Assembly: GCF_037975245.1 (NCBI RefSeq)
Contig: NC_092577.1
Location: forward strand, 36,572,898-36,636,897
DNA from: Apostichopus japonicus
Taxonomy: Eukaryota; Echinodermata; Holothuroidea; Aspidochirotida; Stichopodidae
Reading direction: 5' to 3'
Length of the DNA stretch: 64,000 nt
The notes beneath the pieces were generated by a model. That model was not told the origin of the DNA. It did no database searches and was given only the letters and a program-made list of their open reading frames with translations. Of the stretch, positions 6,801 through 60,180 are shown piece after piece (positions within the stretch are counted from its first letter, which is position 1; every line of letters starts with the position of its first letter). The translations under genes were made by a program, and so were the position numbers.

Positions 6801-9800
6801 TCACTATCTTGTTACAAAAAATAATCAACTATTTACATAACAATAGGATGTCTGCTTGATTTTTCTTTAAATTAAATCTTGCTCTCCATACAAAAAAGAT
6901 ATTGACCTCACTGATACACATGTGGACACCTGCCTGCACCTAGATGTATCTCATACAGTGTACATACAGGTACAGGCTATTCCACATAAAATTGAACCAC
7001 CACTCTAAAGCCTTGAACATGAAGAAGGACCAATGTTGAACTTTAGAGTCTATTGACTGTACAATGTACACCTTCAGGTTTGCATTTTAGTGGTAACGTT
7101 GACAGTGGTTTTATATGTCCATTATGCTTTATTTCACTGGGGTAAGTCCACATACTTGAACATTTAAGACAAATTTACACATTGAAGCTTTGTTTTTATT
7201 TTATAACTTTAGTTGGAAACACCTTTGGAACCTTTAATTTACAAGTGTAAGGTGACTAACAGATTCTGCACACTAATTTATGTAACAAGTTACATGTGCT
7301 TGTATGCTAAATAGATTTCAAACTACAGAAGCAGATTGACTCACAGTAGTTTCTTACAGACTTAGTAAAATCACAACAAATTGAATAAAATGTTAAAATA
7401 TGAAGAAAAAACTTGATTTAAATCAGTGATTGAAAAAAAACTTTGTTTAAATCACAATTTAAATAAATGATTTAAATCACTGGGACTTTCATCAGCCAAC
7501 CCTGAGTAATGCTAACTTGAAAGTAGTCATCTTAATTATATAGTACATCAACTACCAGATATTTTGAAAATGAAAAATTCTTACCAGTGATGAAAATTGT
7601 GTTTAATCACGATGTTCCTGTGTTCAATCTAGATGTTACTGTGTCCAATATATATATTCAATTGTCCTGATTAGTTACAACAAGGTTTTCTTCATTTTTT
7701 TTGCAAATATCATTGAATGTGCTTCCAATATTTTGCAGGATAGGTACAGTAGATGGAGAAGTACATGATTTGAGTGGATACTGGTTCATATTTTGCTCAA
7801 ACCAGAAAATTTTGCGGTTCAGTACTTCCTCCAAAACTTATAATCCTTATGTAAGTAATATGGAGTACATGTCATTTAATACATTTTGTACATTGTAGAG
7901 GACAGGTTTTAGCAGATCTACTGCTTTCCCTGAATTTTATCGTTGTTGGTGTCAACTAATTAGGCTTGACTGACGCCTATAGAAATGCTTCTTCCATGAA
8001 TACTTGGTAATTGCCAAACATGTGTACTGTAGTACTAAAGAGTTCAGTACAATACTACACAGAACAGTATACTGCATGTATATTTTGATGATAAATACTG
8101 CATTAAGGCAGTATATATATACGATCTCAGATAAATCATACTAGCAGTAATATATTTTACAGTTAGACAGAGTGAAAGGACAATGTTAATTAAGTATATG
8201 CCCATGCAGCAATATAAATTACGACAGCAAGAGATATAACGCACCACAACATGTCATAATGTACATATGTACTTATGAACACAACATTAGATAGGCTCCA
8301 TTTCACATGACAATTAAGACCGCAGACGATATCTCTGACTCAACAGTGTTTTGGCAAGAGTCACATATTAAGATACAGTATGTATCACAATAAACGTCAG
8401 TCCTCCCAAATTATTGACTGCTATTCTGAAAGCTTCTGTATGATGAAGTTACTGCGGCGATGAAAATTAATATAATTTATTCAAACCTCACGTATGCCAG
8501 TACATTAATTTTGTTCTAAGTACTACTTGTCTTAAAATGAATTTTTCATACGTTTATAAAGTCTGACAGATCATAAATGGTATACTGTATGTTTACTAAA
8601 CTGGGAAGTGCATTGCATATATACATGTACTGTACATAGGTACTGTACATAGGTACTTTACATAGGTGCTGTACATAGGTACCGTACATACAGTAGGTAT
8701 CCGTACATAGGTACTGTACATAGGTAGGCTACTGTACAGTACATAACAAATTAAAAGCTCATTATAGTGAGTTTTTGTATGAGCTAAAGTGCAGTCACAT
8801 ACATGTACAGTAATTACATTTTAATAATAAATTTAAGTGCAACTGACATGTAGTTTTAACATACTTCATTGTATTCAGCAGTTTATTCCTAGATATGAGA
8901 GGTTTCTTTGATTTGTTTTTATGGTTGAGATCTTTGCACAATACGTGAGATTTGGAGGTCCAACCCACCATGAAATGAACAGGGCTCATTTTTAAGAAAC
9001 TTTCCCACCATGAGATGATTCAATTCAGTGCGTTTTATGACTATAAGACTGTGAAAGTTAGATCCATCCCACCATGACAGTGCATGTCAAAATTATACTG
9101 AGTTTATACAGTACAACATGGTAGGTTAAAAACAAGCCTATCCTTCTTTACACTCTAAATGATACTGAGTCTAGTATACAGTACTGTATGGTAGGTTTAC
9201 TAGCCTACATATCCTTCTTTTACACTCTTAATTAAACTGAGTCTATACTGTAATGCAGTGTTGCCAAGAGTAAACATGAACTCTGTACATTGCATACATT
9301 ATTTAGTATGAATCAAATGGAATTGTGAACAGAAAGAGATACTGGTAGCTGGTGATATTATTTACATGCATGTTCAAAGTTCATTTAATTATTTTTTTAT
9401 TTGAACTGAAATAAATCAAAAGAGTAAAAAGTGCTGCATAAATTTCTCATAGATTTAACTGACTGAGCACTGTTGATCAGTTAAATGCAAAAGGAATTTG
9501 ACAAACAGGCATTCACAAGGGAGTTGCCCACACAGTTTGTACTTTTTGCTGTTTTCTCATCATAATTGATTGAAAAATTAAAACAATGGAAACTTGAAAA
9601 TTCAGATTTGGAATTTTTGGGTTAGCACTGCACAGTGTATTATTATTTGAACTTGCTAGTACATTCCAGGGAATATTTGTCATTTCAGATATAATTTAAA
9701 GAATGCAAAACCTGTCCGTGTGATGATGAGTCAGCAAAGCTATGTAATTGGCTTTATAGTCATGAATGTTATATCATACGCTACACATCCCTTGGGTATT

Positions 9801-18800: not shown

Positions 18801-21800
18801 GCTGCCTTGGTAAGAGCCATTATTAAATATTCCGACTGAGGATCGAAACATATTTCACACAAGAGTTTTTGTCACCTTCAATGTCATTAGAATACAGATA
18901 CAAATTTTCAGGTAGTTTATTTCTGGTATTTTGTTTCTCAGCTGAAGTATTTTTTATTTACATGCATGTTAGCTAGTGCAATTACCAACAATTTAAGTCA
19001 CAACACACACCTAGATATGACTGTAATATCTACTGGAAATGGTCTACATTTTGTGTACACTTGAAGTATTTATTTTTGGATCTTTATTGGTGGATCCAAG
19101 AAAATAGAGAGGATCACAAACTGCTTTGTATGTTAATGAATCTGTGCATGAATATGCATAAACATATATGGGATTAGTCTCTTAAAGGATGCCTTTTGTT
19201 GGTGGATCCACGAAAATGGAAAGAATCTCAAACTGCTTTGTATAAATGAATCTTTGCCTGCATCAACATTTATATGGGATTAGTCTCTGGAAGGTTGGTT
19301 GTAGTAATGTTTCTGTATATGCCAGTTTTCAATATATTCACCAATAAGCTTAAAATCACTGGAATGCAACATAGCAGGCTAAAGTGATGATAACCCAAGC
19401 GATTCTTCACTACAGGCATAAATGTTAATGTCAATCCAAATTTTCATTTTCACTGAACTTTTAGTGCAGTAAGCTGGAAAGGTTGAAGTTTAAATTTGGC
19501 AAACAAGTACTGAGACTTTCATACAATTCTTAAACTTTTAATGTGTTACCGTAGTTGTGAGGGATGCACAGGGTTATCTTGGATAGAAGACCAGATTTAT
19601 AGCAAAAAGTGTTTTGTTCCAGCCAGGTTTAGCTATTACTATTCAAAATGCCTTTAGTACAAGTACAAATCCATCAAGAATTACACACAAACTTCAAACA
19701 AGGAAACTACTGTATGCTAGAATATATGTATCTAATGCAGTACTATGCAGCGTATCGCTTCATGTCTAGATATATTGACCAATCACCATGAAGCATGATC
19801 TCCTCGCTACATACCTACAATATAGCAAACAGTTACTTACTATACTTACAGCATATGATCCAGCCTTCATTCATTCATAATTGAGAACTAATTATAGGAA
19901 TAGAATGGAAATCATGCCCAAGAGGATAATTCCTTGACTAACTCTCAGCTTGGCTATAAATAATTGATTATCATAGATCTGTTTTTGTTATACACAACAT
20001 CCATACACTGGTGCTGTGGCCAGGGGATAAAGACAGTGGCTTATGAAGCAATGAGGCTTAGCAATCGAGAGGTTTCGGGTTCGATACCCGGCAGGGTCAT
20101 AGCAAAGTAAATTTAGCATTAAAGAGCAGTCTACGGTATTCCCATCTGAAATGACTTTTGAAATGAAAAGATTCCAAATGTTGAGTTAAAATGTTGAATT
20201 AGAAGCCACCGACGTAAAAGTTGTAATCAATAGGCCCTTGCGGGTTTCAGTCCCACATATGTGGTGGCCTAAGTTCATCTACGAGGGGTGAGTGGAAGTT
20301 AGTTTCAAAGCTAATTAGGAGTCGCAATGTTGAAAGAAGGAAGTTTAGCAGGATATTCTAATAACGTGTTGAAACATGACAATTTTCATTGATATGGATC
20401 CATGTTAAACACTGCACCGTAAGTAAGCAGACCTATTACAACAGCCTACAGCTAGCTGTTTGAATCAGTAATGTCCTGATGTATAGATTCACTTCAGCTT
20501 CCATGCGGATTGAATACCATAGTCTCAATTAGCAAAACTCGCAGATAATTACGTAGCCCATATCTGACAATGTTGAATAAGGGATGGGGGAGGGGGTACA
20601 GAGGATGGAGGGGAATTAGTTACATGGGTGTAGTTAGGGGGAGCCTAAGGAGGGGTAGGGGAGAGAGTAAAGATGCTGTAAGGGAATTACATGGGTGTAG
20701 TTATCGAAGCCAGGGGTGGAGGCAGGGCAGCTGGAATAGGGTAAAGATGCTGTGAGAGGCATGACATGGATGTAGTTAAGGGGGCCGGGGGAGGGGGCAG
20801 GGGAGCTGGGATTAAGGAGAGGGTGAAAATGCTGTGAGAGGAATGACATGATGTTCATGGAGAAAGTGATATAGAATAACATCCATGCACATGCATTTAT
20901 GTTTTAGTTGAAACACCTCATTCATGATTTCAGCAAAATTTAAGAGGATAAATATATTCCTGCTTATAGGCCAATAACATTATTAATTATATGAAACCTT
21001 TATTGTCTTCTTTCCCTTCTAGAGCACACCAGGCCAATGTGAACTATTTGCTGAACAAGGAGACACACTGTCCATCATGTACACAGTAAGTAAAACTAGA
21101 TTCACATCTTCATCTAGATGTATCTAGTATAACTAGATACACATCTTCATCTAGATGTGTATCTAGTATAACTAGATACACATCTTCATCTAGATGTATC
21201 TAGTATAACTAGATACACATCTTCATTTAGATGTATCAAGTACAACTAGATACACATCTCCATCTAGATTTATCTAGTATAACTAGATACACATCTTCAT
21301 CTAGATGTACATCTTGTATAACTAAATACACATCTTCATCTAGATGTATCTAGTATTACTATATACACTTCTTCATCTAGATGCAGATCTAGTATAACTA
21401 GATACACATCATCATCTAGATGTATCTAATATAACTAGATACACATCTTCATCTAGATGTACATCTAGTATAACTAGATACACATCTTCATCTAGATGTA
21501 CATCTAGTATAACTAGATACACATCTTCATCTAGATGTACATCTAGTATAACTAGATACACATCTTCATCTAGATGTATCTAGTATAACTAGATACACAT
21601 CTTCATCTAGATGTACATCTTGTATAACTAAATACACATCTTCATCTAGATGTATCTAGTATAACTAGATACACATCTTCATCTAGATGTACATCTAGTA
21701 TAACTAGATACACATCTTCATCTAGATGTATCTAGTATAACTAGATACACATCATCATCTAGATGTATCTAATATAACTAGATACACATCTTCATCTAGA

Positions 21801-38683: not shown

Positions 38684-38871
38684 CTAGGTATACATGAATT
38701 CCAGCTTTCGGGCTACTTTTAATAATTTGACCTCTTCGAAAGGGGATGCTTCTAGGTGGGCCCCAACTGGAAGGTTGTCGATGAAACCGACATTTAGGGA
38801 CAAAGCCGGAAACCCAGTCAGATCGGCAGAGAAGAGGTTGTCACTCATGTTCTCAGATTCAGTTATCAGAT
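38684..38871 (-). CDS. Amidase exon 11 (C-terminus and stop)
   Basis: Follows TTTTCTGTAG; G|AT gives Asp470. It codes for [20 protein letters not shown] and DNLPVGAHL and ends LEFMYT-TAG. TG-PALS---G-----PVG is the conserved C-terminal block. The end is shorter than usual for the family, so a further alternative 3' exon cannot be excluded. Confidence 0.87.
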
Positions 38872-41800
38872 CTACAGAAAATAAAATATGAAAAGAGGTT
38901 CTCACTCATGCTGTCAAATTCAGTTAACAGATTTGTGAAGGATTCCACACAAATTATGCATTATTTGTTTGGAATATCTCTAACATGCATGATATTTCAA
39001 ACTTTTGTGGCAACATTGTGTGACAAATACTTATAAGTGAAATACATTTAGCAAAACAGTCTTTGCTGAAGTTTAGAGCCATCAAGTAAATGCATTTTCT
39101 TTTGTTGATTCCCTTAACCTCAGCAAGCTACATATATGGGTTTTCAACCACATGTTTTCCAATATTCCAAGTTATGCAAATATCCAAACTAATATTTTAG
39201 TATATATGAACATGAGGTATGTACTTAAAAATATAAAATTGCTAAAAGAAAATAATATTAAATGCAAACCAAATAGTCAACAGTTACACATAAAACCTTC
39301 AGGACACCTACTTAAAGAACAGTTTGACTTTAATTTCTTACTGAATTTTGACCTTGTAGATATTTAATTCTATAAATACCTAATGGATGAGTTTATGGTT
39401 TATTTATATTGGCAGTTTAATGCTATAGCTACCAGATGTGACAAATCCAATTAAAGCCCGGCAGCAACGATAACAACCATCGACTGGATGTCCCTAATTT
39501 CAGGTGTCAATTACACATCAAATGGTGCAGGCCTACAAAACGGAAACACCTTGTAATATCCTATTGATATTGCTCAACTATTAAATTATAAAGCTTAAGT
39601 TGATGCCCTTTAATGACCTTCATAAACTTGGAGTGCATAAAGAAAGCCATAATAAGGTGTCCTCACCCTCCACCCAGAGATTAAGCCAGCCTTGCTTTGC
39701 ACAGCCAGTTCTGCAAAATCACAACCTAAATTGTGAACAACTTTCGGAATATATGTGAACCCTGCATCTAATTCATGTAAATTTCTACCACTTGCAATGG
39801 CCTTATTGATTTGTTTGTAAACAATATTTATCGATGTTGAAATATTTTGTGCAATGATTCATAAACAAGAGAGGAGAGGGAAAAAAATAATGGGAAAGTA
39901 CTATTTATCAATCTTTTACAACCAATGTTGGAAAGTCAGGCCACAACAGGGCCGACCAGGGACGGATGATGGTGGAGAGGGATGATGACTGGGGGAGGGG
40001 GGGATGGATGATTACCAGGAGGGTGATAACAGGGGATGCATGATGATTGGCAGGGATGATGACGGTGAACAGATCATGATGATGGGGAGGGATGTTTACT
40101 ATACAAAGTAGATATTTTATTCCATACTGTAGCTAGCAATTAACCATTTCCATTGAACTATGAAGTTGCTAAAAGGCCCTTAGAATAGCTCCAAAAAGCA
40201 TGAAACTTTGCCCTCAGATAACCCAAACAATTGCAAAATATCACAGGGGCTGTTGATGCCCACACGTGTCCCTCAAGAAAATTCGTTTGCAATGTTTTGG
40301 CATCATGATTTTGTGACACAAAAATAGCACACCCAGTTTTTCATTTGCACACCTAAATGGCCAAATCCTGCCACAACCCCCTCCTCTACCCCAACCCCCC
40401 AGACCCTCAACATGACCCTTTAAAGTAAACATTATCTTTTACCAGTATTTAGTATCCATGATATTCAAGCCTGCCTATTTTGTATCATCTCAGGCATAGG
40501 CGTACGAGGCGGGGGGGCAGGGGGGCAGACTGCCCCCCCAAATTTCCAGAGGACAAGAAATTCGGGCAAAAGTCCTGAAAAATTCGGGCAGCCTAAGAGG
40601 AGAAAGAATTTTTTTTTTTTTTTTCTCCTCTTAGGCTGCCCGAATTTTTCAGGACTTTTGCCCGAATTTCTTGTCCTCTGGAAATATATATAAATATGCA
40701 GTAGCTTGCCCGAATCTTTTTCAAATTTTTGCCCCACAATTCCATGGTTTTCTTTATTTAGCATCATGATGCCCGAATATTTCCGTGTAACACCACCGTA
40801 AGCGCAGTTCATCTGGGCTACCACGCTTTTTGCTCGATCAATTTTTTTCTAACTAGTCAATTGCATACCTAGACCAAGGGCGGCGGAACCGGGGGGGGCA
40901 CAGGGGGCACGTGCCCCCCACTTTTCCTCAGGTTAAAAAATGTGCCTTTTTTCTACATAAAAATTGAGGTGCCTCAAGTTAGCAAGAGGCCAGGGAACCA
41001 GAATGAACACTCGGGGAGGGCCGTTTCCAGCCATCTGAGGGGTTTATAAAACCAAAAATTTTCTCTATAGTACGCTCCGCGCCAACTGATGGTGGCGCTC
41101 CGCTCAGATAGTCGTGCATACAACTTTGCAAATCCTGGCTAAGCCTGTGACTTTTAATGAATTTCTGTTGGTCAAACTCAAAGCTATTTCGAATGGAAAA
41201 AATTTGTTAAGATATTAACAAGAAAAAAAAACTCTAATTCGGAAGATTCCTACATTAGCAACTAGCATGATTTCACCTCATTTTGTCTCAAAAGAAAACT
41301 TCCTTGTTTCCCAATTTGCGCTTTGGATATTGCAGTGCTAGTATGCATATTTTCCTTTGGGGGGGGGGGGCGTTGATGGAGTGATGTGTATACACAAATA
41401 AGATAATACAATAAGAGTTATAAATTAGGGTACTAAATATAAGGCTGTATCATTCCAATCGAATTTTTGCAAAGTGCCCTTTGATGTCGGTGCCTCCCCC
41501 CCCCCAGAATAAAAGTGCTTCTGCCGCCCTTGACCTGGACATCCCCAACATGAGTGTATATAAGAAACATTTTCTTTTCCATGGATGGTGGGGGGGTGCC
41601 TACAAGTACAGGTTTATCATATTCTTTGTTATATTTTATACTTTTTTTGTGAGACAAATTGCAGTCTCAGCCGACACAGCGACATTATCCCGCCTACGTG
41701 TCGTTGAACAATGTATGTTTTTCTGGAGGTAGCTGAGTACTGTGTTAAAATAATAAATAAGGTAACTAAATAGGAGCTTAAAAAATATACTGTCCCATTT

Positions 41801-44800
41801 TTCCCCTTCAAAGTGATGTTACCATTTTTTCTTCTTCTAATTTACCAAATTTTTGGGGAAGTGTAAATTTCTAAAACGTGAGATTATAAAATAAAGAATG
41901 TTTAGGTGCAACTTGCAAGGCCTCAGAAGTGCCGTTTCCGGCAATCTGAGAGGCATTGTTTGCCAAAAATTTTCTTGTACGCTACGCGCCAACCGATGGT
42001 GGCGCTCCGCTTAGATAGTGTCACGGGAACTTTCGGGCACAAAAAGTTCTGCCCCCCCAAACTGAAATGGTCCCGTACGCCTATGATCTCAGGTTTGGAG
42101 GAGTGGAGGGAGAAATCTCCAAGTATAAAATGTTGTGGGAACAGGTGGGGGGGGGGGATTTGGTAAAAGTCACCGCACATTAAGGCTCACTGGGCCCATT
42201 GCCCATTATACCACTCCTAAAAGTTGCCGTCACTCTCCTTTCTAGTCATCTGCAACTATTATAACTATTCCAACCATCTCTATTACTTCTCCTAAGGGTA
42301 CATTCTTTTTTGCTGCTTCTTAACAATGAGAAGAGGAAGACACCATGTACTCACCAAACACTGAACTGTCTTTGGTGGGTAACTTGGGTGCTAAAAACGG
42401 GACTGTTGGCATAGCAACAACATCGTACGTCTTAAGGATTGCCTCATATTCTTCTCTCAGTAAACGTCTGAGATTCTGAGCTTTACCGTACCACTGGCCA
42501 GGATAGTTCTGTTTGATATATTCCGCAGATAACATAAACATCTAAATTAAAAGAGAAAAATGAACAACTCTGAATTTATGGATCCCAACTTACAACTATA
42601 TTTGTTTGATGATTTAAAGGTCATTTCATGACTTTCTAACATTACAAAGAGAAGCTATATTTGCAAGCTGTGTGGTAGAACACATTGTGGGCTGAGTGTG
42701 GCTGGTTGGCCGAATGCAGCCCTCGAGCCAATTTTCTGCCTTCAATGATAAGGTTTGCTCAACTCTAGTAATGCTGTGCACTGAATTTGAATGGCAAGGA
42801 TAGAGGGTTAGGGCATACTTGTAATCTGCCAATTTTTTGCCTTTTGCTGATTTTGAGCTCTGAGATAAATGAAGGCAACATACTATTGACAACAATTACT
42901 GTGGTAGTCTACCCGTCCTTGCATTCCACCTCACAGCTGCTATCTTCCTATTCCTACTGACCCTCCTAATATGGTTTGAAAACCATGAAATGTGTATTTT
43001 TATAAAAATACGACTACAGGCCCAGTCACCTTTTAAGGTAGGCAAATTTGATGGATATCCAAATCTCCATTCTCAAACGTTCCTTTATTGTATACACACC
43101 TATGTGTTTACACACCTATATGTTTACACACCTATGTGTTTACACACCTATGTATTTACACATCTATGTGATTACACATCTATGTGTTTACACACATATG
43201 TGTTTACACACCTATATGTTTACACACCTATGTGTTTACCTTGCCATTGTGTGAGAGATCCTTGGCTTTGGTCTTGAAAGATTTTCCAGCAAAGGCCATC
43301 ATACTTGTTGGATAGAAGCCGGAATGTCCAGTTCCACCACCTATTGTAATGTAATGTAAATAAAATCTTATATAGCGCACTACGCGCGATGCATCTGTGC
43401 GCTTTACAAACAATCTAGAAAATACAATGCCATAAAACATTAAATAGAAAAAACAGTAAATACATATACCATCTACAGAAATATACAGAAATATGAGATC
43501 GAAAAACTATTGAAAGTACTGGTGAAGCGTAAATTCGATAAAACAGATTGACTACAAAATCTACAATTTGAATGCTAAAAAGTGAAAATTGTGATCAGGT
43601 ACGTGCTACTGTATGTTCTTCAAAGGAGTGTTGCAGCATATACACTCTGAGAACCTTCACGGTCTGACTGCTGTCAAGGAGGCAAACTGCTGAGCTAGAA
43701 GGGGCCCCTAAGGGTCATGGCTGGAAGTTTTTGTGTAATAATTGATTTGTGCCATCATAACCCCAGTGAACATGGGTCTGCATCCTACCCCATTTGCAAC
43801 CACCCCCCCCCCCCTCATACCCCCTTACATTCTGAAAACTGTATCAGGCTACCTGGCTAAGCAGTCCCTCCTTGAATGTCTGTACAATCACACCTTTTGC
43901 TTGCTTCATTTCTAGCCACTTAAAAGTGTATATTTATTTTAATTTTGTGATACCATGATAATTAAAACATGAATGTAGAAAGAGTCAGACATTTACCACC
44001 ACAGTTGAACATGTTATCAAAGGTTCCTTCACAGGCTAAGCATTCCCAAATAGCGCCACCTTTTGAGAAATGGGAGAGACACAGATCAGTAAGCTAGTAT
44101 TTCTCACAGGCTAGTCCTTTCTTTTACAAGACGGCCACTTGTTAGGATGTTATGTACGTTATATTGTGGTCAGGGGTGTACTGTAGTACCAGTGACGTGA
44201 GGTTAATACTTCAATAAAAACATAACTAACTAAAGTTGAGCTCTTATATATGATATTTTAGTTTCTGACATTTATAGGCAAATATGCTGCAAGTCAAGAA
44301 ATCGGTTATGTCTGGCTTGACCCTTAATGAGACAGGATACTACTAGAGATGTTTGTTTGAGCAAAAAGGCATTTTGAGAATTGCAGATTAAATAAATAAA
44401 AATCACGTTTCTTTATCTACCGACTGGTTGACATGCATGTCTGCAATAAGGTACACTTTAAGTTTTTTAACTTGAAAGCCAGACTGATAATGTTCAACAG
44501 CAAATTAGGTTTTGTTTTCAAAAGATCTACATTTTATTAAAAGGCAAAGCTATACTTCACCAGGGTAAATTAAACAACTTTACTAAAAACTAATATATTG
44601 AAAGGTCAATATACAGATATAAATGACTTAAGATCTGCTTCCTAACTGCACTTTTTTTTAGCTGCTAGTTTAAGTGAACTTTTCTGTTAAAACAGGATGC
44701 TAAGGAAATCATTCTGAAGAGGTCTTGTGTCACAATTAGGAATGTATCCCGGGGTTTGAGTCAAATTAAATCTTCCTTAGCTGTTTGACACTGTACAGGA

Positions 44801-50800: not shown

Positions 50801-53800
50801 ACTTATGGTGGCGCTAGGCTTAGATAGTCTGGGTACAAGCTTTGCCCCTCCCGTGGCAAATTCCTCACAAGGCGCCTGTTTAACTGTGTCACAATTTGTT
50901 ACTATAAATGACCGAAAGTAGTTTTTACTTTTTTTTCGAAATGAATAGCTAGACGGACCGCATCCGTAATGAAATTTGGTTGGAATCTTGTGTATGAGTG
51001 TAAGTACGTACAATCACACATATGATCCACATCGATATGGGTTCACTGGGTTTCCATTTGGCCTGTTTCCTACAAGATTTCTAACCGCAGGTGCTTAGCC
51101 AAGGGAGGGGGGGGGGTGAAGGGTGGAGACCGCCCTCCCCCTCGAGCATATTTTTTTGGTATTTTCTATGATATCGAAGTTTTATAGTAGCCGTTATAAG
51201 AGGTTTCAATATTTTTACACCAATAATTTAACTGTGTCTGAATTTTCGAAAATTCTTTGAACAACATTCTTCATCATACTTCCCACAGATCTACTCGTGC
51301 AATTTTGACCGGTCTGTTAGGGGTTGAGGGGGGGTTTTCTATATTGGTTGTCCATAGATTAAATTTTGTGCAACATTATGGGTATGTTTTGAAGTGAATT
51401 TATTATTCAAATTCTGAACAAATAATGGGCTTAAAACCATGAAAAGTGGGGCTGACGGGTATTAAGGGGCGTTACGTAGAATTACCTACAAAAGCAATGA
51501 TCCACAGGGGATGCAATGAGGTCGAACATGATGTGTGACTGGTGACAATCTTGAAAAAATGTATGATAAATGAAGAAAAAAATCTATTAGGTAAAACTTG
51601 GTTCTCAGGCAAAAGTGCACATCTGGTTGGTCATTTTCAAGCCCGAGAAGTGCCATTTCCAGTGATCTGGGGGCTATCAAAACCAAAAATGTTCTTGTAT
51701 GCTGCGCGCCAACCAATGGTGGCGCTCCGCTTTGATAGTAATTCGCCTGCATCCAAGCAAATGTCCCCCAATATTTGAAACAGATCGCCGCCCCTGCCTA
51801 GTACCTCCTTTAACTTCCTCCCTACTTCAGACCCATCGAATCCTACCGTCCCTCCTTCCATGAGCCACCGCTCTCCTCCAAACACTCCTGATACCAATAC
51901 TTTGTTCTTGCTGTCCATAATTACTCATACCTTCGTCCAAAATTCTTGTAACTACCGAAGCATCAAACTCTGGCATGTATCCCTCTAATGCACCACAACC
52001 ATTCATCATGGGAACTCCAGCTACTGCTATGTTATCTTTGATGGCCACGGTCTTCCCTGCAAGTTTCCCATCCTCTGCGCCTTTAATGTCTGTTTTCCAG
52101 TACCTGTACATAAATAAACATTCTCTCTTTTTGCATGCAAACGTCAAAGGGGATGCACCAATTTAAAACCTCTGTCTGGGTGATATGAACTCAGAATGTA
52201 GAGAAAACATTTGAAAATAATTACACCCTCAGGGATTAAACAAACCTTCTTAATGGACCAGATAGTCCCTAACAATTATGCTCTTCCCCTACCCCATTAA
52301 TATTTTCACTCCTCCCCCTCACCCTTCCCCAACCCCTCACCTTCAGGTTGGTTTTAAGATGTACTGGGCAGAAACAAATGAGTACTAATGTGTGACTGCA
52401 TCGGTTCATTAACTATTCCTTCAGTATTACACAGAAAATTACTTACGTTATTGAAGCTTGAAATTTCTCAAAGGGGAGCTCAGGTGGACAGCCTCTCCCC
52501 TTACACCCCTCCCCCAGGCTGCCATGTTCATTACTTAAAATCCAACCCTTCCCTCCTCCCTTTTATCTATAGGCATGACTATTGAAATGTATTACAAACC
52601 ATCTATTCAGAGGGCTGTCTTTAGCTGTTGGTCTAGTGCCTGGTGTCCGAGGATACTTGACTGGTAATGTTGGTTCCACCAACCCTCCCCCCCCCCCCCT
52701 TGTATATAGGCATGACTATTAATACACACCATCCATTAAGAGGGTTGTCTTTAGCTGTTGGTCTAGTGCCTGGTGTCCGAGGATACTTGACTGGTAATGT
52801 TGGTTCCACCAACCCTCCCCCCCCCCCTTGTATATAGGCATGACTATTAATACACACCATCCATTAAGAGGGTTGTCTTTAGCTGTTGGTCTAGTGCCTG
52901 GTGTCCGAGGATACTTGACTGGTAATGTTGGTTCCACCAACCCTCCCCCCCCCCTTGTATATAGGCATGACTATTAATACACACCATCCATTAAGAGGGT
53001 TGTCTTTAGCTGTTGGTCTAGTGCCTGGTGTCCGAGGATACTTGACTGGTAATGTTGGTTCCACCAACCCCCCCCCCCCACCCCCTTGTATATAGGCATG
53101 ACTATTAATACACACCATCCATTAAGAGGGTTGTCTTTAGCTGTTGGTCTAGTGCCTGGTGTCCGAGGATACTTGACTGGTAATGTTGGTTCCACCAACC
53201 CTCCCCCCCCCCCTTGTATATAGGCATGACTATTAATACACACCATCCATTAAGAGGGTTGTCTTTAGCTGTTGGTCTAGTGCCTGGTGTCCGAGGATAC
53301 TTGACTGGTAATGTTGGTTCCACCAACCCCCCCCCCCACCCCCTTGTATATAGGCATGACTATTAATACACACCATCCATTAAGAGGGTTGTCTTTAGCT
53401 GTTGGTCTAGTGCCTGGTGTCCGAGGATACTTGACTGGTAATGTTGGTTCCACCAACCCTCCCCCCCCCTTGTATATAGGCATGACTATTAATACACACC
53501 ATCCATTAAGAGGGTTGTCTTTAGCTGTTGGTCTAGTGCCTGGTGTCCGAGGATACTTGACTGGTAATGTTGGTTCCACCAACCCCCCCCCCCACCCCCT
53601 TGTATATAGGCATGACTATTAATACACACCATCCATTAAGAGGGTTGTCTTTAGCTGTTGGTCTAGTGCCTGGTGTCCGAGGATACTTGACTGGTAATGT
53701 TGGTTCCACCAATCCCCCCCCCCCACCCCCTTGTATATAGGCATGACTATTAATACACACCATCCATTAAGAGGACTGTCTTTAGCTGTTGGTCTAGTGC

Positions 53801-55578
53801 CTGGTGTCCGAGGATACTTGACTGGTAATGTTGGTTCCACCAACCCTCCCCCCCCCCTTGTATATAGGCATGACTATTAATACACACCATCCATTAAGAG
53901 GGTTGTCTTTAGCTGTTGGTCTAGTGCCTGGTGTCCGAGGATACTTGACTGGTAATGTTGGTTCCACCAACCCTCCCCCCCCCCTTGTATATAGGCATGA
54001 CTATTAATACACACCATCCATTAAGAGGGTTGTCTTTAGCTGTTGGTCTAGTGCCTGGTGTCCGAGGATACTTGGCTGGTAATGTTGGTTCCACCAACCC
54101 TCCCCCCCCCCCTTGTATATAGGCATGACTATTAATACACACCATCCATTAAGAGGGTTGTCTTTAGCTGTTGGTCTAGTGCCTGGTGTCCGAGGATACT
54201 TGACTGGTAATGTTGGTTCCACCAACCCTCCCCCCCCCCTTGTATATAGGCATGACTATTAATACACACCATCCATTAAGAGGGTTGTCTTTAGCTGTTG
54301 GTCTAGTGCCTGGTGTCCGAGGATACTTGACTGGTAATGTTGGTTCCACCAACCCCCCCCCCCACCCCCTTGTATATAGGCATGACTATTAATACACACC
54401 ATCCATTAAGAGGGTTGTCTTTAGCTGTTGGTCTAGTGCCTGGTGTCCGAGGATACTTGACTGGTAATGTTGGTTCCACCAATTTGTCGATGGTATCATA
54501 ATTTTCGCAAAATTTCTTCATGAAACTCTGGTATTGTTTCAGGTCTTCTGTTCCGTTCAACTTTAGACCTAGCTTTGTTGATATATTTTCCAACTCTTTC
54601 AGAGACGGTGGCCTAATAGAAGGTTCATTATAAACTTGATCTGGGTAACAAAGTTTACAAGAAACTTATTAATAAGCTGATATAAATTTGTTCAATTAAT
54701 GTATATAGCCAGGGGAGATCCAAGGAGGCGACCCAGGCCCCCATTTCTGTTTTTTATGGCCCTTTTATCATAAAAAATACACTTTGAATAAGACAGAATT
54801 AAATTAACGTTCATGGCAAGCTATGCTTAGATCATTTATAAATCCATAGTTCAGCACAGACCTTCAAAATAATGATATAAATAGGCCAGTGATATAGGCT
54901 TGTACATATGCACATGTCTACCGTATTCAGCCAGTAATATAGGCATTACTGTATATGTACAGCCGTTTTCCTACAAATTTTTTAGTTTTGCTGTCGCAGT
55001 ACCACAGCTATATGGATTCATAGGCGTAGGAGGCGGGGCTGCAAATATTTTTGTGAATTTGCAATGTGTTTTCAATGGATAAACTTATATTATTATCATT
55101 ATTATTGTAACGACTTCCCGAATAATTATAACCAATATGGAAGGGTAATATTACGGAAAATGATTGTATGTTATTGCCATGCGATGTAATAAGCGATGTA
55201 TGCCTATATGATATTCAAAATAACACGTCGAACGCGCGCGGAGCGCCCGAAAAATATTGGTTATATATTTTGCGGGCAAGTCGTTACAGCCCCCCCCCCC
55301 CAATCAAATTGGGCTCATACGCCTATGTATGGAATCAATTTCCTATCCAAAACAGACCCTGGGGCGAACCGTGTCCGTTGATGTTAAGTACACATTATAA
55401 TCGCTCATTTTTTTTGGTAGAATTGAGTTACTATTAATGTTGTCTAGTTTCCAACTGAACGCATGCAATGATCAATTGCATATTGTTTGATATGTAAAGC
55501 AACACTTTATTACTTACCACCAGACACGGACATTTCAGATGTTGGATATTGATTGCTCGAATCTCGGATATCAGACAT
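38684..55578 (-). CDS. Amidase-signature family hydrolase, complete, 11 coding exons
   Basis: Exons on the minus strand: 55578-55518, 54640-54400, 52103-51931, 49792-49653, 48212-48012, 47045-46971, 45994-45829, 44059-43997, 43340-43240, 42541-42355 and 38871-38684. All joins are GT-AG and in phase, giving 531 residues, a usual length. The family hydrolyses amide bonds with a Lys-cisSer-Ser triad; the substrate cannot be read from sequence. Triad candidates are K123 (AIKDN), S198 ([11 protein letters not shown]) and S222 ([18 protein letters not shown]). Spacings of 75 and 24 residues equal those of mammalian FAAH (142/217/241). [18 protein letters not shown] and GLDPRQP resemble bacterial and fungal AS amidases more than FAAH. 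No signal peptide or membrane anchor is seen, so it is probably soluble. The C-terminal part after residue 510 is short and the final FMYT is unusual. Confidence 0.92.
40241..40440. other. Amidase intron 10, non-coding part
   Basis: Between exon 11 and the hAT element at 40495 lies about 1.6 kb of AT-rich DNA. It has a small GATGATGG-rich minisatellite at about 39960-40090 and C-rich sequence here. No exon is seen. Confidence 0.5.
40543..40685. repeat. Long inverted repeat, about 64-base arms, poly-T loop
   Basis: The left arm starts ATTTCCAGAGGACAAGAAAT and ends GCAGCCTAAGAGGAGAAA. The right arm, after a short T-rich loop, is its exact reverse complement by eye. A transcript through it would form a long perfect hairpin. 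Confidence 0.93.
40875..41532. mobile_element. Nested hAT-like MITE
   Basis: Starts CAAGGGCGGCGGAA and ends TTCTGCCGCCCTTG. ACCTAGAC (40867-40874) and ACCTGGAC (41533-41540) flank it, an 8-bp duplication with one change. It contains the core ACTGATGGTGGCGCTCCGCT. It is inserted inside the element 40495-42085 and is therefore younger than it. Confidence 0.88.
42355..42541 (-). CDS. Amidase exon 10
   Basis: Follows CTTTTAATTTAG. It codes for [36 protein letters not shown] and [24 protein letters not shown] is a family hallmark. It ends TTTG|GTGAGT in phase 1. Confidence 0.94.
43085..43239. repeat. 17-18 bp minisatellite made of the exon 9 donor sequence
   Basis: About nine copies of ACACACCTATGTGTTT(AC) up to the exon 9 donor. 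On the minus (gene) strand each unit reads GTAAACACATAGGTGT or a close variant, so the genuine donor GTAAACAC is the first unit of the array. Confidence 0.92.
43240..43340 (-). CDS. Amidase exon 9
   Basis: Follows TACATTACAATAG; G|GT gives Gly374. It codes for [20 protein letters not shown] then LSHNGK, and ends AAG|GTAAAC in phase 0. A minisatellite of the donor sequence starts directly at its 3' edge. Confidence 0.88.
43997..44059 (-). CDS. Amidase exon 8
   Basis: This 63-base exon follows TTTCTCAAAAG; A|GT gives Ser353. It codes for [17 protein letters not shown] and NCG, matching the WxxIAxEG helix of the family. It ends GGTG|GTAAAT in phase 1. Confidence 0.88.
45340..45460. repeat. Three diverged copies of a roughly 40-bp repeat
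   Basis: TTGATCAAATGCACTTC, AACAGAAACAACATAG and close variants recur three times in amidase intron 7. Confidence 0.75.
45829..45994 (-). CDS. Amidase exon 7
   Basis: Follows AATGTTACTTTCAG. It codes for [20 protein letters not shown], then [17 protein letters not shown], the usual LKIG-V-EGF and A--L---GA-V--VSIP strands. It ends TACA|GTAAGT in phase 1. Confidence 0.94.
46971..47045 (-). CDS. Amidase exon 6
   Basis: This 75-base exon follows ACATTTTCTGCAG. It codes for [14 protein letters not shown] and a tail ending HEYSKE, continuing the LLLEVLAG-DGLDPRQ block of the family, and ends GAG|GTTGGT. Confidence 0.92.
47195..47460. repeat. Direct repeat, about 105-110 bp, 2.5 copies, amidase intron 5
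   Basis: GCAGGACTGTGATAATAAGG and TGGTTTATTTTCAATTTCAG recur, with only small changes in the second and third copies. Confidence 0.9.
48012..48212 (-). CDS. Amidase exon 5 (nucleophile serine)
   Basis: Follows TTCACATGCAG in phase 0. It codes for [20 protein letters not shown], with S222 as the likely nucleophile, then [20 protein letters not shown] and [19 protein letters not shown]. It ends GAG|GTATTG in phase 0. Confidence 0.96.
48855..49472. repeat. 18-bp minisatellite in amidase intron 4
   Basis: About 33 copies of GAGCTACGCTGAGCTAGT with variants (GAGGTAGT, GCCGAGCTACT, TGATCACG). AGCT occurs twice per unit and the unit is partly self-complementary. Confidence 0.95.
49653..49792 (-). 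CDS. Amidase exon 4 (GGSSGGS signature)
   Basis: Follows TTTCGTTCAG; G|GT gives Gly159. It codes for [18 protein letters not shown] and then [12 protein letters not shown], the amidase signature with the cis-Ser S198. It ends CTG|GTACTA in phase 0. Confidence 0.95.
50533..51796. mobile_element. hAT-like MITE with 8-bp target duplication (CCTAGTAC)
   Basis: Starts CATGGGCGGCGATCATGG and ends CAGATCGCCGCCCCTG, flanked by CCTAGTAC on both sides (50525-50532 and 51797-51804). The GTGGCGCT core occurs twice (about 50808 and 51717). Parts of other family members are nested (50700-50880 like 29881-30162; 51170-51740 like 1041-1660). It lies in amidase intron 3. Confidence 0.92.
51931..52103 (-). 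CDS. Amidase exon 3 (catalytic lysine)
   Basis: Follows TTATGTACAG; TG|G completes Trp101, then [19 protein letters not shown] and [16 protein letters not shown] with the triad Lys123. It ends GACGAAG|GTATGA in phase 1. Confidence 0.93.
52590..54480 (-). repeat. 127-131 bp tandem array of the 3' end of amidase exon 2 with its splice donor
   Basis: Fifteen units; the one at 54400-54480 is the end of the working exon. Each unit carries 81 exon bases (coding for [20 protein letters not shown] then DNPLNGW), the donor GGATG|GTGTGT and about 48 intron bases with a C9-C12 run. Units are nearly identical apart from the oldest-looking one at 52598-52680, one A-for-V change near 54075 and one S-for-N change near 53775. 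All copies other than the first lie in intron 2. Confidence 0.95.
54400..54640 (-). CDS. Amidase exon 2
   Basis: Follows TTACCCAG; starts in phase 1 and ends GGATG|GTGTGT in phase 2. It codes for residues 21-101, with [17 protein letters not shown] and [16 protein letters not shown], the conserved N-terminal lead-in of this amidase type. A TTAG acceptor at 54613 inside it is a possible alternative, but would break phase with exon 1. Its last 81 bases are the first unit of the tandem array to its left. Confidence 0.9.
55019..55327. mobile_element. hAT-like MITE with near-perfect 8-bp target duplication
   Basis: Starts CATAGGCGTAGGAGGCGGGG and ends TTGGGCTCATACGCCTATG, flanked by TATGGATT (55011-55018) and TATGGAAT (55328-55335). 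It is a shorter relative of 1718-2149. It lies in amidase intron 1. Confidence 0.87.
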
Positions 55579-58609: not shown

Positions 58610-60180
58610 TTCTAAACAGTTACAGTGGTTAGTGCTATGTACTTAGAAAGTAAGACAAACTCTCTGTCTAGAATTCAACTCCCAGAGGATGTATTGATTT
58701 GGTATTTCTTTTCCTCATTTTGCAGTTAAAATGTTAGAAAAGCCTATCATTTCTCAATTAACAGTTACTATGGCGCAGTTGTTATGTTGTAAAATTTTGC
58801 ATATTTATTATTGTTTTCTACAAAGAAATTGTCAATAAACTGAAAGAAATGAGACATACTCCTTGTCTTGAGTTCAAACACCAGAGGATGCATCTGATTT
58901 TCTATTTATTTGCCTCCTAATGTTGTGAAGATTAAATATTAGAAACGAATATTAATTCTCAACAGTTCTAGTGGCGCAGTTGGTAGTGCTCTGGACTGGA
59001 GAGACACAGACAAACTCCATGTCTCCGGTTCGATCCCCAGACAGAGCATTTTGATTTTCTGTTCTTTTCCTTCTTCCATTCTGGACTTTGAAGTTTAAAT
59101 ATTAGAAACGAGCACTCATTCTCAACAGTTCTAGTGGCGCACTTGGTAGTGCTCTGGACTGGAGAGACACAGACAAACTCCATGTCTCCGGTTCGATCCC
59201 CAGACAGAGCATTTTGATTTTCTGTTCTTTTCCTTCTTCCATTCTGGACTTTGAAGTTTAAATATTAGAAACGAGCACTAATTCTCAACAGTTCAAGTGG
59301 CGCAGTTGGTAGTGCTCTGGACTGGAGAGAGACAGACAAACTCCATGTCTCCGGTTCGAACCCCAGACAGAGCATTTTATATTTTTGCTCTTTTACTGAT
59401 TCCATTCTGGACTTTGAAGTTTAAATATTAGAAACGAGCATTAATTCTCAACAGTTCTAGTGGCGCAGTTGGTAGTGCTCTGGACTGGAGAGACAAACTC
59501 CATGTCTCCGGTTCGATCCCCAGACAGAGCAAATTTTTTTGGGCTCTTTTATACTGATTCCATTCTGGACTTTGAAGTTTAAATATTAGAAACGAGCACT
59601 AATTCTCAACAGTTCTAGTGGCGCAGTTGGTAGTGCTCTGGACTGGAGAGAGACAGACAAACTCCATGTCTCCGGTTCGAACCCCAGACAGAGCATTTTA
59701 TATTTTTGCTCTATTACTGATTCCATTCTGGACTTTGAAGTTTAAATATTAGAAACGAGCATTAATTCTCAACAGTTCTAGTGGCGCAGTTGGTAGTGCT
59801 CTGGACTGGAGAGACAGACAAACTCCATGTCTCCGGTTCGATCCCCAGACAGAGCATTTTATATTTTTGCTCTTTTACTGATTCCATTCTGGACTTTGAA
59901 GTTTAAATATTAGAAACGAGCACTAATTCTCAACAGTTCTAGTGGCGCAGTTGGTAGTGCTCTGGACTGGAGAGAGACAGACAAACTCCATGTCTCCGGT
60001 TCGATCCCCAGACAGAGCATTTTATATTTTTGCTCTTTTACTGATTCTATTCTGGACTTTGAAGTTTAAATATTAGAAACGAGCACTAATTCTCAACAGT
60101 TCTAGTGGCGCAGTTGGTAGTGCTCTGGACTGGAGAGAGACAGACAAACTCCATGTCTCCGGTTCGATTCCCAGACAAGC
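58610..60180 (+). repeat. Tandem array of tRNA-like pol III units, about 160-bp period
   Basis: Eight close copies (GTAGTGCTCTGGACTGG at about 58983, 59144, 59308, 59470, 59629, 59791, 59951 and 60116) preceded by two decayed ones from about 58620. Each has box A TGGCGCAGTTGGT, box B GGTTCGATCCC or GGTTCGAACCC, then T-runs that could end pol III transcription. The acceptor can pair for five bases (GTTCT/AGAGC), but the anticodon loop lacks the usual T and the T stem is poor, so these are tRNA-like, not standard tRNA genes. Confidence 0.8.

What the first reader, a model, noticed from the sequence alone, without database searches (positions are those of the whole stretch)
52590..54480. A coding exon end plus its splice donor has been amplified 15-fold inside its own gene
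Seen: fifteen 127-131 bp units in tandem, each with the last 81 bases of amidase exon 2, the donor GGATG|GTGTGT and about 48 intron bases. The unit joined to unique coding sequence (54400-54640) is the working one; the rest sit in intron 2 as near-identical decoys. Known: minisatellites made of exon-intron junctions are rare. Inference: recent unequal exchange or gene conversion, with 14 surplus donors that could compete or lengthen exon 2. The oldest-looking unit lies farthest from the exon, suggesting growth or homogenisation from the exon side.
Basis: partly seen in the sequence, partly recalled or inferred. Interest (0 to 1): 0.85.

Follow-up and report, generated by a model that had tools for sequence, protein, structure and literature searches.

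The report
Splice-donor minisatellite in an amidase gene
The end of one exon, together with its splice signal, has been copied 15 times in a row inside an animal amidase gene; such "mirage" repeats are known from amphioxus genes, and here they also turn up in several other genes of the same genome, mostly at the splice-donor end of exons.

Summary
The array is real: 15 head-to-tail units (window 52546-54482), each holding the last 83 nt of exon 2 of a minus-strand amidase gene, a splice donor and a short piece of intron. The genome search found it at one place only. Spliced from unit 1 (exon end 54400) to 52103, the protein aligns to a solved amidase with no gap at the join; splicing from any of units 2-15 gives the same early stop. 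So unit 1 is most likely the working donor and 14 are decoys, 13 of them equally strong on paper. This is a known kind of object: the "mirage" minisatellites of amphioxus. What is added: the genome, probably the sea cucumber Apostichopus japonicus by assembly size, carries further mirages, in four of the five amidase genes examined (counting this one) and in CCT, Sec1-type and ALDH genes. They cover donors more than acceptors: 14 of 113 against 2 of 114 usable junctions by alignment. The rate is uneven: 0 of 56 kinesin/myosin exons had one. Most decoys would give a stop; in one paralog they are in frame and would add 20-residue repeats. No RNA or population data were available.

The parts
54400..54640 (-). 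Amidase exon 2 (241 nt); its last 83 nt (54482-54400) are the exonic part of unit 1
   Evidence: joined product aligns to 3a1k
52546..54482 (-). Array of 15 units; units 1-14 are 126-131 nt: 83 nt exon 2 end + donor-led 43-48 nt of intron; unit 15 is 137 nt with a longer, diverged intron part
54394..54399 (-). Donor GTGTGT of unit 1 (exon ...GGATG|GTGTGT), taken as the working donor
   Evidence: no RNA seen
52683..54352 (-). Units 2-14: decoy exon ends with donors identical to unit 1
52546..52682 (-). Unit 15: first 67 nt identical to the rest, the remainder diverged (donor ATG|GTTTGT)
54479..54482 (-). TTGG in exon 2, start of each unit; the same four bases follow unit 15 at 52545-52542 (GGGTTGGATTTT): possible microhomology of the first duplication
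   Evidence: sequence; mechanism inferred
51931..52103 (-). Amidase exon 3, acceptor ...TGTACAG|G
43089..43239 (-). Second donor-side array of the same gene: 16-bp unit x 9.4 that begins at the donor of the exon ending about 43237 (almost no exonic part)

Best explanation
It is a mirage minisatellite: a tandem duplication of an exon-intron border that kept the first copy as the real exon end and left the rest in the intron. Likely steps: (1) inferred: a first duplication between a TTGG in exon 2 and a TTGG about 137 nt further on in intron 2; (2) inferred from near-identity: later unequal exchange, slippage or conversion made and homogenised the copies, sparing the far edge, whose distal part has diverged; (3) shown on sequence: only the donor of unit 1 keeps the amidase frame, and all 14 others lead to one stop in unit 2; (4) inferred: splicing chooses the first donor after the acceptor of exon 2 (exon definition, co-transcriptional order), so the array is largely silent, with any leakage sent to nonsense-mediated decay. 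Because decoy donors lie after the true one, donor arrays should be better tolerated than acceptor arrays, whose decoys come first; this fits the donor excess in the genes sampled here.
For: Unit anatomy and a single place found in the genome. Joined exons 2-7 match the solved amidase 3a1k at 1.1e-94 (query 13-328), with no gap at the exon 2/3 join. Donors 2-15 (14 of 14) give the same stop; donor 1 gives none up to the end of exon 3. Same kind of object in amphioxus, with copies at both exon borders, RT-PCR taken to show regular splicing, and array edges left out of homogenisation (passages of PMC3087553; of PMC3902484). In this genome junction repeats are also in amidase paralogs B, C, D and, worn, E, and in CCT, Sec1 and ALDH genes. 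Alignment test: 14 of 113 donors against 2 of 114 acceptors exceed all 1362 null scores, p 0.0016; without gene A 12 of 105 v 2 of 105, p 0.010; the 17 control genes only 7 of 73 v 0 of 74, p 0.006. Placement test: 11 arrays on donors against 2.5 expected, 2 on acceptors against 2.6 (21 genes without A, 125 exons).
Against: Independent slices around 56 kinesin and myosin exons held no array over either exon edge (0 of 56 and 0 of 56), so the rate is uneven (7 of 91 v 0 of 56, p 0.044); with 190-nt flanks long periods (by my estimate above about 150) would be missed. Four donors were set by eye after seeing the arrays (two in control gene CCT17, one in D, one in A); without this the excess shrinks to 9 v 2.5 (p 7e-4) and in controls to 5 v 1.6 (p 0.019). 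In the alignment test several predicted donors are a few tens of nt off or uncertain, and hits C 11015 and GP 11673 were not inspected by eye. Array cover after control donors (0.085 within 50 nt, 0.14-0.17 from 50 to 800 nt) is near the non-exon mean of 0.138, so part of the asymmetry is a lack of arrays before acceptors rather than a surplus at donors. Recalled, not looked up: classical work on duplicated donors reports use of the intron-proximal copy, which argues against a simple 'first donor wins'. No transcripts were seen.
Confidence: 0.85

Rival explanations
1. Regulated unproductive splicing: the decoy donors are used on purpose or by leakage to make stop-containing mRNA, and copy number tunes the amount of amidase.
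For: 13 of 14 decoys score as high as the true donor (matrix recalled); every decoy gives the same stop.
Against: In the four paralogs fetched, exon 2 has another donor array (B), an acceptor array (C) or none found (D, E), so no shared device is seen; amphioxus mirages are reported not to disturb splicing. No RNA evidence either way.
Confidence: 0.12
2. Assembly artefact: the units were multiplied by the assembler.
For: Units 2-14 are nearly identical.
Against: Units carry different G-tract forms and private changes in an irregular order, and the far unit is diverged; if the assembly is that of PMC10344927 it rests on about 64x HiFi reads of mean 14.7 kb (passages), more than seven times the array.
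Confidence: 0.04
3. A dispersed satellite or mobile element that happens to include coding sequence.
For: Tandem structure, high copy number.
Against: All 15 copies found lie at this one place and the unit contains this gene's own exon end in frame.
Confidence: 0.01
4. Chance only: a genome rich in minisatellites will have some arrays on exon borders, with no special process at donors.
For: Arrays cover 13.8% of the non-exon bases of the 17 control regions; 56 further exons show none; arrays just after donors are not denser than elsewhere in introns.
Against: Arrays start in exon ends 11 times against 2.5 expected under viable random placement (9 without settings by eye), and donors exceed acceptors in each of three cuts of the alignment test.
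Confidence: 0.35

Closest known systems
Mirage minisatellites of amphioxus (Adh3 of Branchiostoma; globins BflGb6 and BflGb9; passages of PMC3087553)
   Same: Tandem units that span an exon-intron border, at either end of an exon, units with splice signals, high identity inside and an edge unit left out of homogenisation
   Different: 15 copies of a unit of about 128 nt here, against 6 and 3 repeats (two haplotypes) of 150-160 bp in BflGb6; other phylum if the genome is a sea cucumber; donor side dominates in my sample; no RNA test here
Tandem splice-site repeats in lancelet PGBD5 (passage of PMC3902484)
   Same: 60 and 108 bp repeats at 5' and 3' splice sites, said not to disturb splicing
   Different: Few, imperfect copies there; many near-identical copies here
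Intron gain by duplication of AG/GT-bearing exon pieces (Rogers, as discussed in PMC3087553)
   Same: Duplicated splice signals could be recruited as new borders
   Different: By eye the units here carry a donor but no good acceptor, and no new intron is seen

Membership tests
Mirage minisatellite (exon-intron border repeat) | Head-to-tail repeats whose unit spans an exon-intron border of the host gene | tested here: met
   15 units, 83 nt exon + donor + intron
Mirage minisatellite (exon-intron border repeat) | Surplus copies keep splice signals | tested here: met
   13 of 14 decoys carry the same donor, unit 15 a weaker GTTTGT
Mirage minisatellite (exon-intron border repeat) | Homogenised inside, edge unit left out | tested here: met
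   unit 15 diverged after its first 67 nt only
Mirage minisatellite (exon-intron border repeat) | Regular mRNA is not disturbed | not testable with these tools
   No transcripts held; frame analysis only
Mirage minisatellite (exon-intron border repeat) | Copy-number instability between alleles or cells | not testable with these tools
   One assembly held, no reads
Amidase signature family (PF01425) | Sequence match to the family over its core | tested here: met
   exon hits above cut-off; 1.1e-94 to amidase 3a1k
Dispersed satellite or mobile element | Copies at several places | tested here: not met
   15 matches, all in this array, within that search's sensitivity

The most novel reading that the evidence does not exclude
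In this animal, splice donors are standing sites of tandem-array birth: exon ends with their donors are repeatedly amplified into the following intron, the first donor keeps the job, and the decoys form a reservoir from which new introns or in-frame protein repeats can be drawn. Amidase paralog D shows the second route: its 60-bp units are in frame and stop-free over the first six decoys, four of which keep a strong donor, so a shift of donor would add 20 residues per unit.
Probability: 0.3. Interest if true: 0.72.

Novelty: new member of a known kind. Interest (0 to 1): 0.55.

Why it matters
A natural gene with 14 surplus donors, 13 of them equally strong by score, is a ready test of how cells pick one donor out of many identical ones. 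If mirages are common here, as part of the sampled genes suggest, they give many natural replicates of that test, a measurable donor/acceptor asymmetry, and a concrete source for new introns and protein repeats, in an animal group for which I saw no report of them in the listings of my searches.

Tried and rejected
Rejected: dispersed satellite. Rejected as unlikely: read-through to later donors giving a longer functional protein in gene A (one common stop). Considered and left open: G-run driven expansion. The units of A and B and one SEC22 array carry long G runs after the donor, but the CCT21 and ALD22 arrays and the other SEC22 array do not, so G runs are not general.

Tried for a rate: 56 exon slices gave 0 of 56, which lowers the rate that the first control genes suggested. 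They were meant to be the first 28 kinesin (of 126 listed) and first 28 myosin matches (of 70 listed) of 120-235 nt without a stop; by oversight I passed over one kinesin match that met the rule (C4:7774314). Control genes: taken were 1 of 1 glycogen phosphorylase locus, 2 of 2 aconitase loci (a lone match at C4:21299304 left out), 2 of 5 Sec1-type loci, 3 of 9 ALDH loci, 9 of 11 CCT-type loci (the two left out look intronless), picked from the match tables before their DNA was seen. Amidase matches on C21 were not fetched.

Weak rows inside the counts: gene D 4926 and CCT17 18852 have about 2 nt of exon but count as donors; gene B's acceptor repeat has 3 nt of exon; CCT17 11607 has an uncertain donor; the predicted donors CCT17 17307 and A 13773 lie inside the array, about 10 to 30 nt from those I read by eye. 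SEC22 6914 was outside the alignment test because its region ended too soon; 113 of 134 donors and 114 of 134 acceptors could be used there.

Literature: sought such repeats; apart from the two amphioxus papers I saw no report in the listings. One search listed 15 of 94 papers, of which I opened one (PMC9210306, not relevant); other listed papers were not opened. One search, on choice between duplicated donors, listed 2 papers that I did not read. The 2002 amphioxus Adh paper is not held.

Full report
What is there. On the minus strand an amidase gene runs down to about 38.7 kb of the window; a likely first exon near 55.6 kb was read by eye only. Exon 2 is 54640-54400 and exon 3 is 52103-51931. 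Fifteen tandem units start in exon 2 at 54482 and run through intron 2 to 52546. Units 1-14 are 126-131 nt: the last 83 nt of exon 2, then 43-48 nt of intron that open with the donor GTGTGT. Length differences lie in a G-rich tract. Units fall in two mixed classes by that tract: a T in the G run (units 1, 6, 7, 9, 11) or an A (units 2-5, 8, 10, 12-14). Units 4 and 6 have private changes in the exonic part. Unit 15 has 67 identical nt, then 3 changes at the exon end and many changes and gaps in the intron part. The genome search finds these 15 copies and lists no others; it warns that it can miss some kinds of sequence.

Which unit works. Exons 2-7 joined with unit 1 as the end of exon 2 match solved amidase 3a1k with E 1.1e-94; the alignment has a few gaps elsewhere but none at the exon 2/3 join. 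That 3a1k is a bacterial (Rhodococcus) enzyme is recalled. Four paralogs have the same exon border. Splicing from each of units 2-15 to exon 3 gives one and the same stop, after 111 codons from the first full codon of exon 2 and inside unit 2, because unit 1 is 130 nt long and shifts the frame. Thirteen decoys score as the true donor does (7.4 bits with a recalled human-like matrix), unit 15 scores 3.5.

Not alone in this genome. The family search found paralogs, of which I fetched four; matches on C21 were not fetched. Gene B has its exon 2 donor in 3 copies of a 192-bp unit and an acceptor of a later exon in 2 copies of 95 bp (3 nt of exon). Gene C has its exon 2 acceptor in 6 copies of 73 bp, three of the five decoys having lost the AG. 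Gene D has a donor in about 12 copies of 60 bp. Gene E has a worn 3-copy donor repeat. I call A, B, C and D clear and E weak. Seventeen control genes (glycogen phosphorylase, aconitases, Sec1, ALDH, CCT; 91 exon matches) were picked from match tables before I saw their DNA (how many of how many is in Tried and rejected). They show donor arrays in SEC22 (two exons), ALD22, CCT21 (two exons; 121 bp x 7 with 62 nt of exon and 46 bp x 12 with 31 nt) and CCT17 (two exons; one with only 2 nt of exon). The other 13 control regions have none by TRF.

Numbers. TRF arrays placed at random where they would leave an exon whole: 11 on donors against 2.5 expected, 2 on acceptors against 2.6, in 21 genes without A (125 exons); control genes alone 7 against 1.6 and 0 against 1.65. 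Four donors were set by eye after I had seen the arrays (two in CCT17, one in D, one in A); without these settings 9 against 2.5 and, in controls, 5 against 1.6. A second test by local alignment with no such settings: 14 of 113 donors and 2 of 114 acceptors exceed every one of 1362 null scores and span the border; Fisher p 0.0016, without gene A 12 of 105 against 2 of 105, p 0.010, controls only 7 of 73 against 0 of 74, p 0.006. Two of these hits (C 11015, GP 11673) I did not inspect. Against this, 56 slices round kinesin and myosin exons gave 0 of 56 and 0 of 56 at the exon edges. Pooled over all controls, with the settings by eye: 7 of 147 donors and 0 of 147 acceptors, p 0.0145. In the control regions array cover is 0.085 in the first 50 nt after donors and 0.14-0.17 from 50 to 800 nt, against 0.00 and 0.01-0.09 before acceptors; the non-exon mean is 0.138, and beyond 800 nt the two sides are alike, 0.098 and 0.107. 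So arrays are scarce before acceptors, and array starts are frequent in exon ends.

What the decoys would do elsewhere. Of 11 donor arrays read by frame, an in-frame stop precedes the second donor in 9 (A, B, E, both CCT21, both SEC22, ALD22, the second CCT17 array; for seven of them, B and the first CCT21 array read by eye because the script took a wrong frame there; the distances to the second donor were read by eye). The first CCT17 array shifts the frame by 31 nt and its decoys are weak (2.3 against 10.5 bits). Gene D is open: its stop comes 393 nt into the intron, after six 60-nt steps; decoys at 180 and 360 nt have lost the GT.

What is known. Tandem repeats over exon-intron borders are called mirages in amphioxus. 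Passages of PMC3087553 describe both borders, AG/GT signals in many but not all repeats, RT-PCR that suggests regular splicing, 6 and 3 repeats in two haplotypes, and edge units left out of homogenisation. A passage of PMC3902484 adds PGBD5 and cites Adh and troponin C. The present array meets the three features that I could test. The genome is most likely Apostichopus japonicus: 671,581,487 bases in 35 contigs, against 671.60 Mb and 34 scaffolds with chromosomes of 18.21-46.02 Mb in PMC10344927 (passages); I saw contigs of 18.20 and 46.04 Mb. This is an inference from sizes only.

Mechanism. Shown: anatomy, frame, one place found. Inferred: first duplication at TTGG, growth by unequal exchange or slippage, choice of the first donor, decay of mis-spliced mRNA. 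Recalled, not looked up: classical duplicated-donor experiments favour the intron-proximal copy, so exon definition must be doing the work here if unit 1 wins.

Noticed in passing
window 38871-38932: Upstream of the acceptor of the last amidase exon found there is a worn copy of about the first 43 nt of that exon (one search score 30, not spanning the border): perhaps a decayed acceptor-side mirage.
   Followed up: partly
L005 local 3614-3441: Amidase paralog C has a TAA in exon 3 (VVTRV*DAG), so it may be a pseudogene.
   Followed up: no
L006 local 8804-9504: Amidase paralog D: 60-bp donor array in frame and stop-free over six decoys.
   Followed up: partly
L028-L030 (CCT17): A CCT gene region with 54% of its bases in tandem arrays.
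   Followed up: no
L022 (CCT21) near local 6613: A copy of an exon end without its donor lies downstream (score 37).
   Followed up: no
window 58926-60177: 163-bp unit x 7.7 with a tRNA-like stretch (GGTTCGATCCCC); ARAGORN calls no tRNA there, only tRNA-His at 20009.
   Followed up: no
window about 51740, 50810 and 42010: Copies of an interspersed repeat in amidase introns that also matches genes C and D.
   Followed up: no
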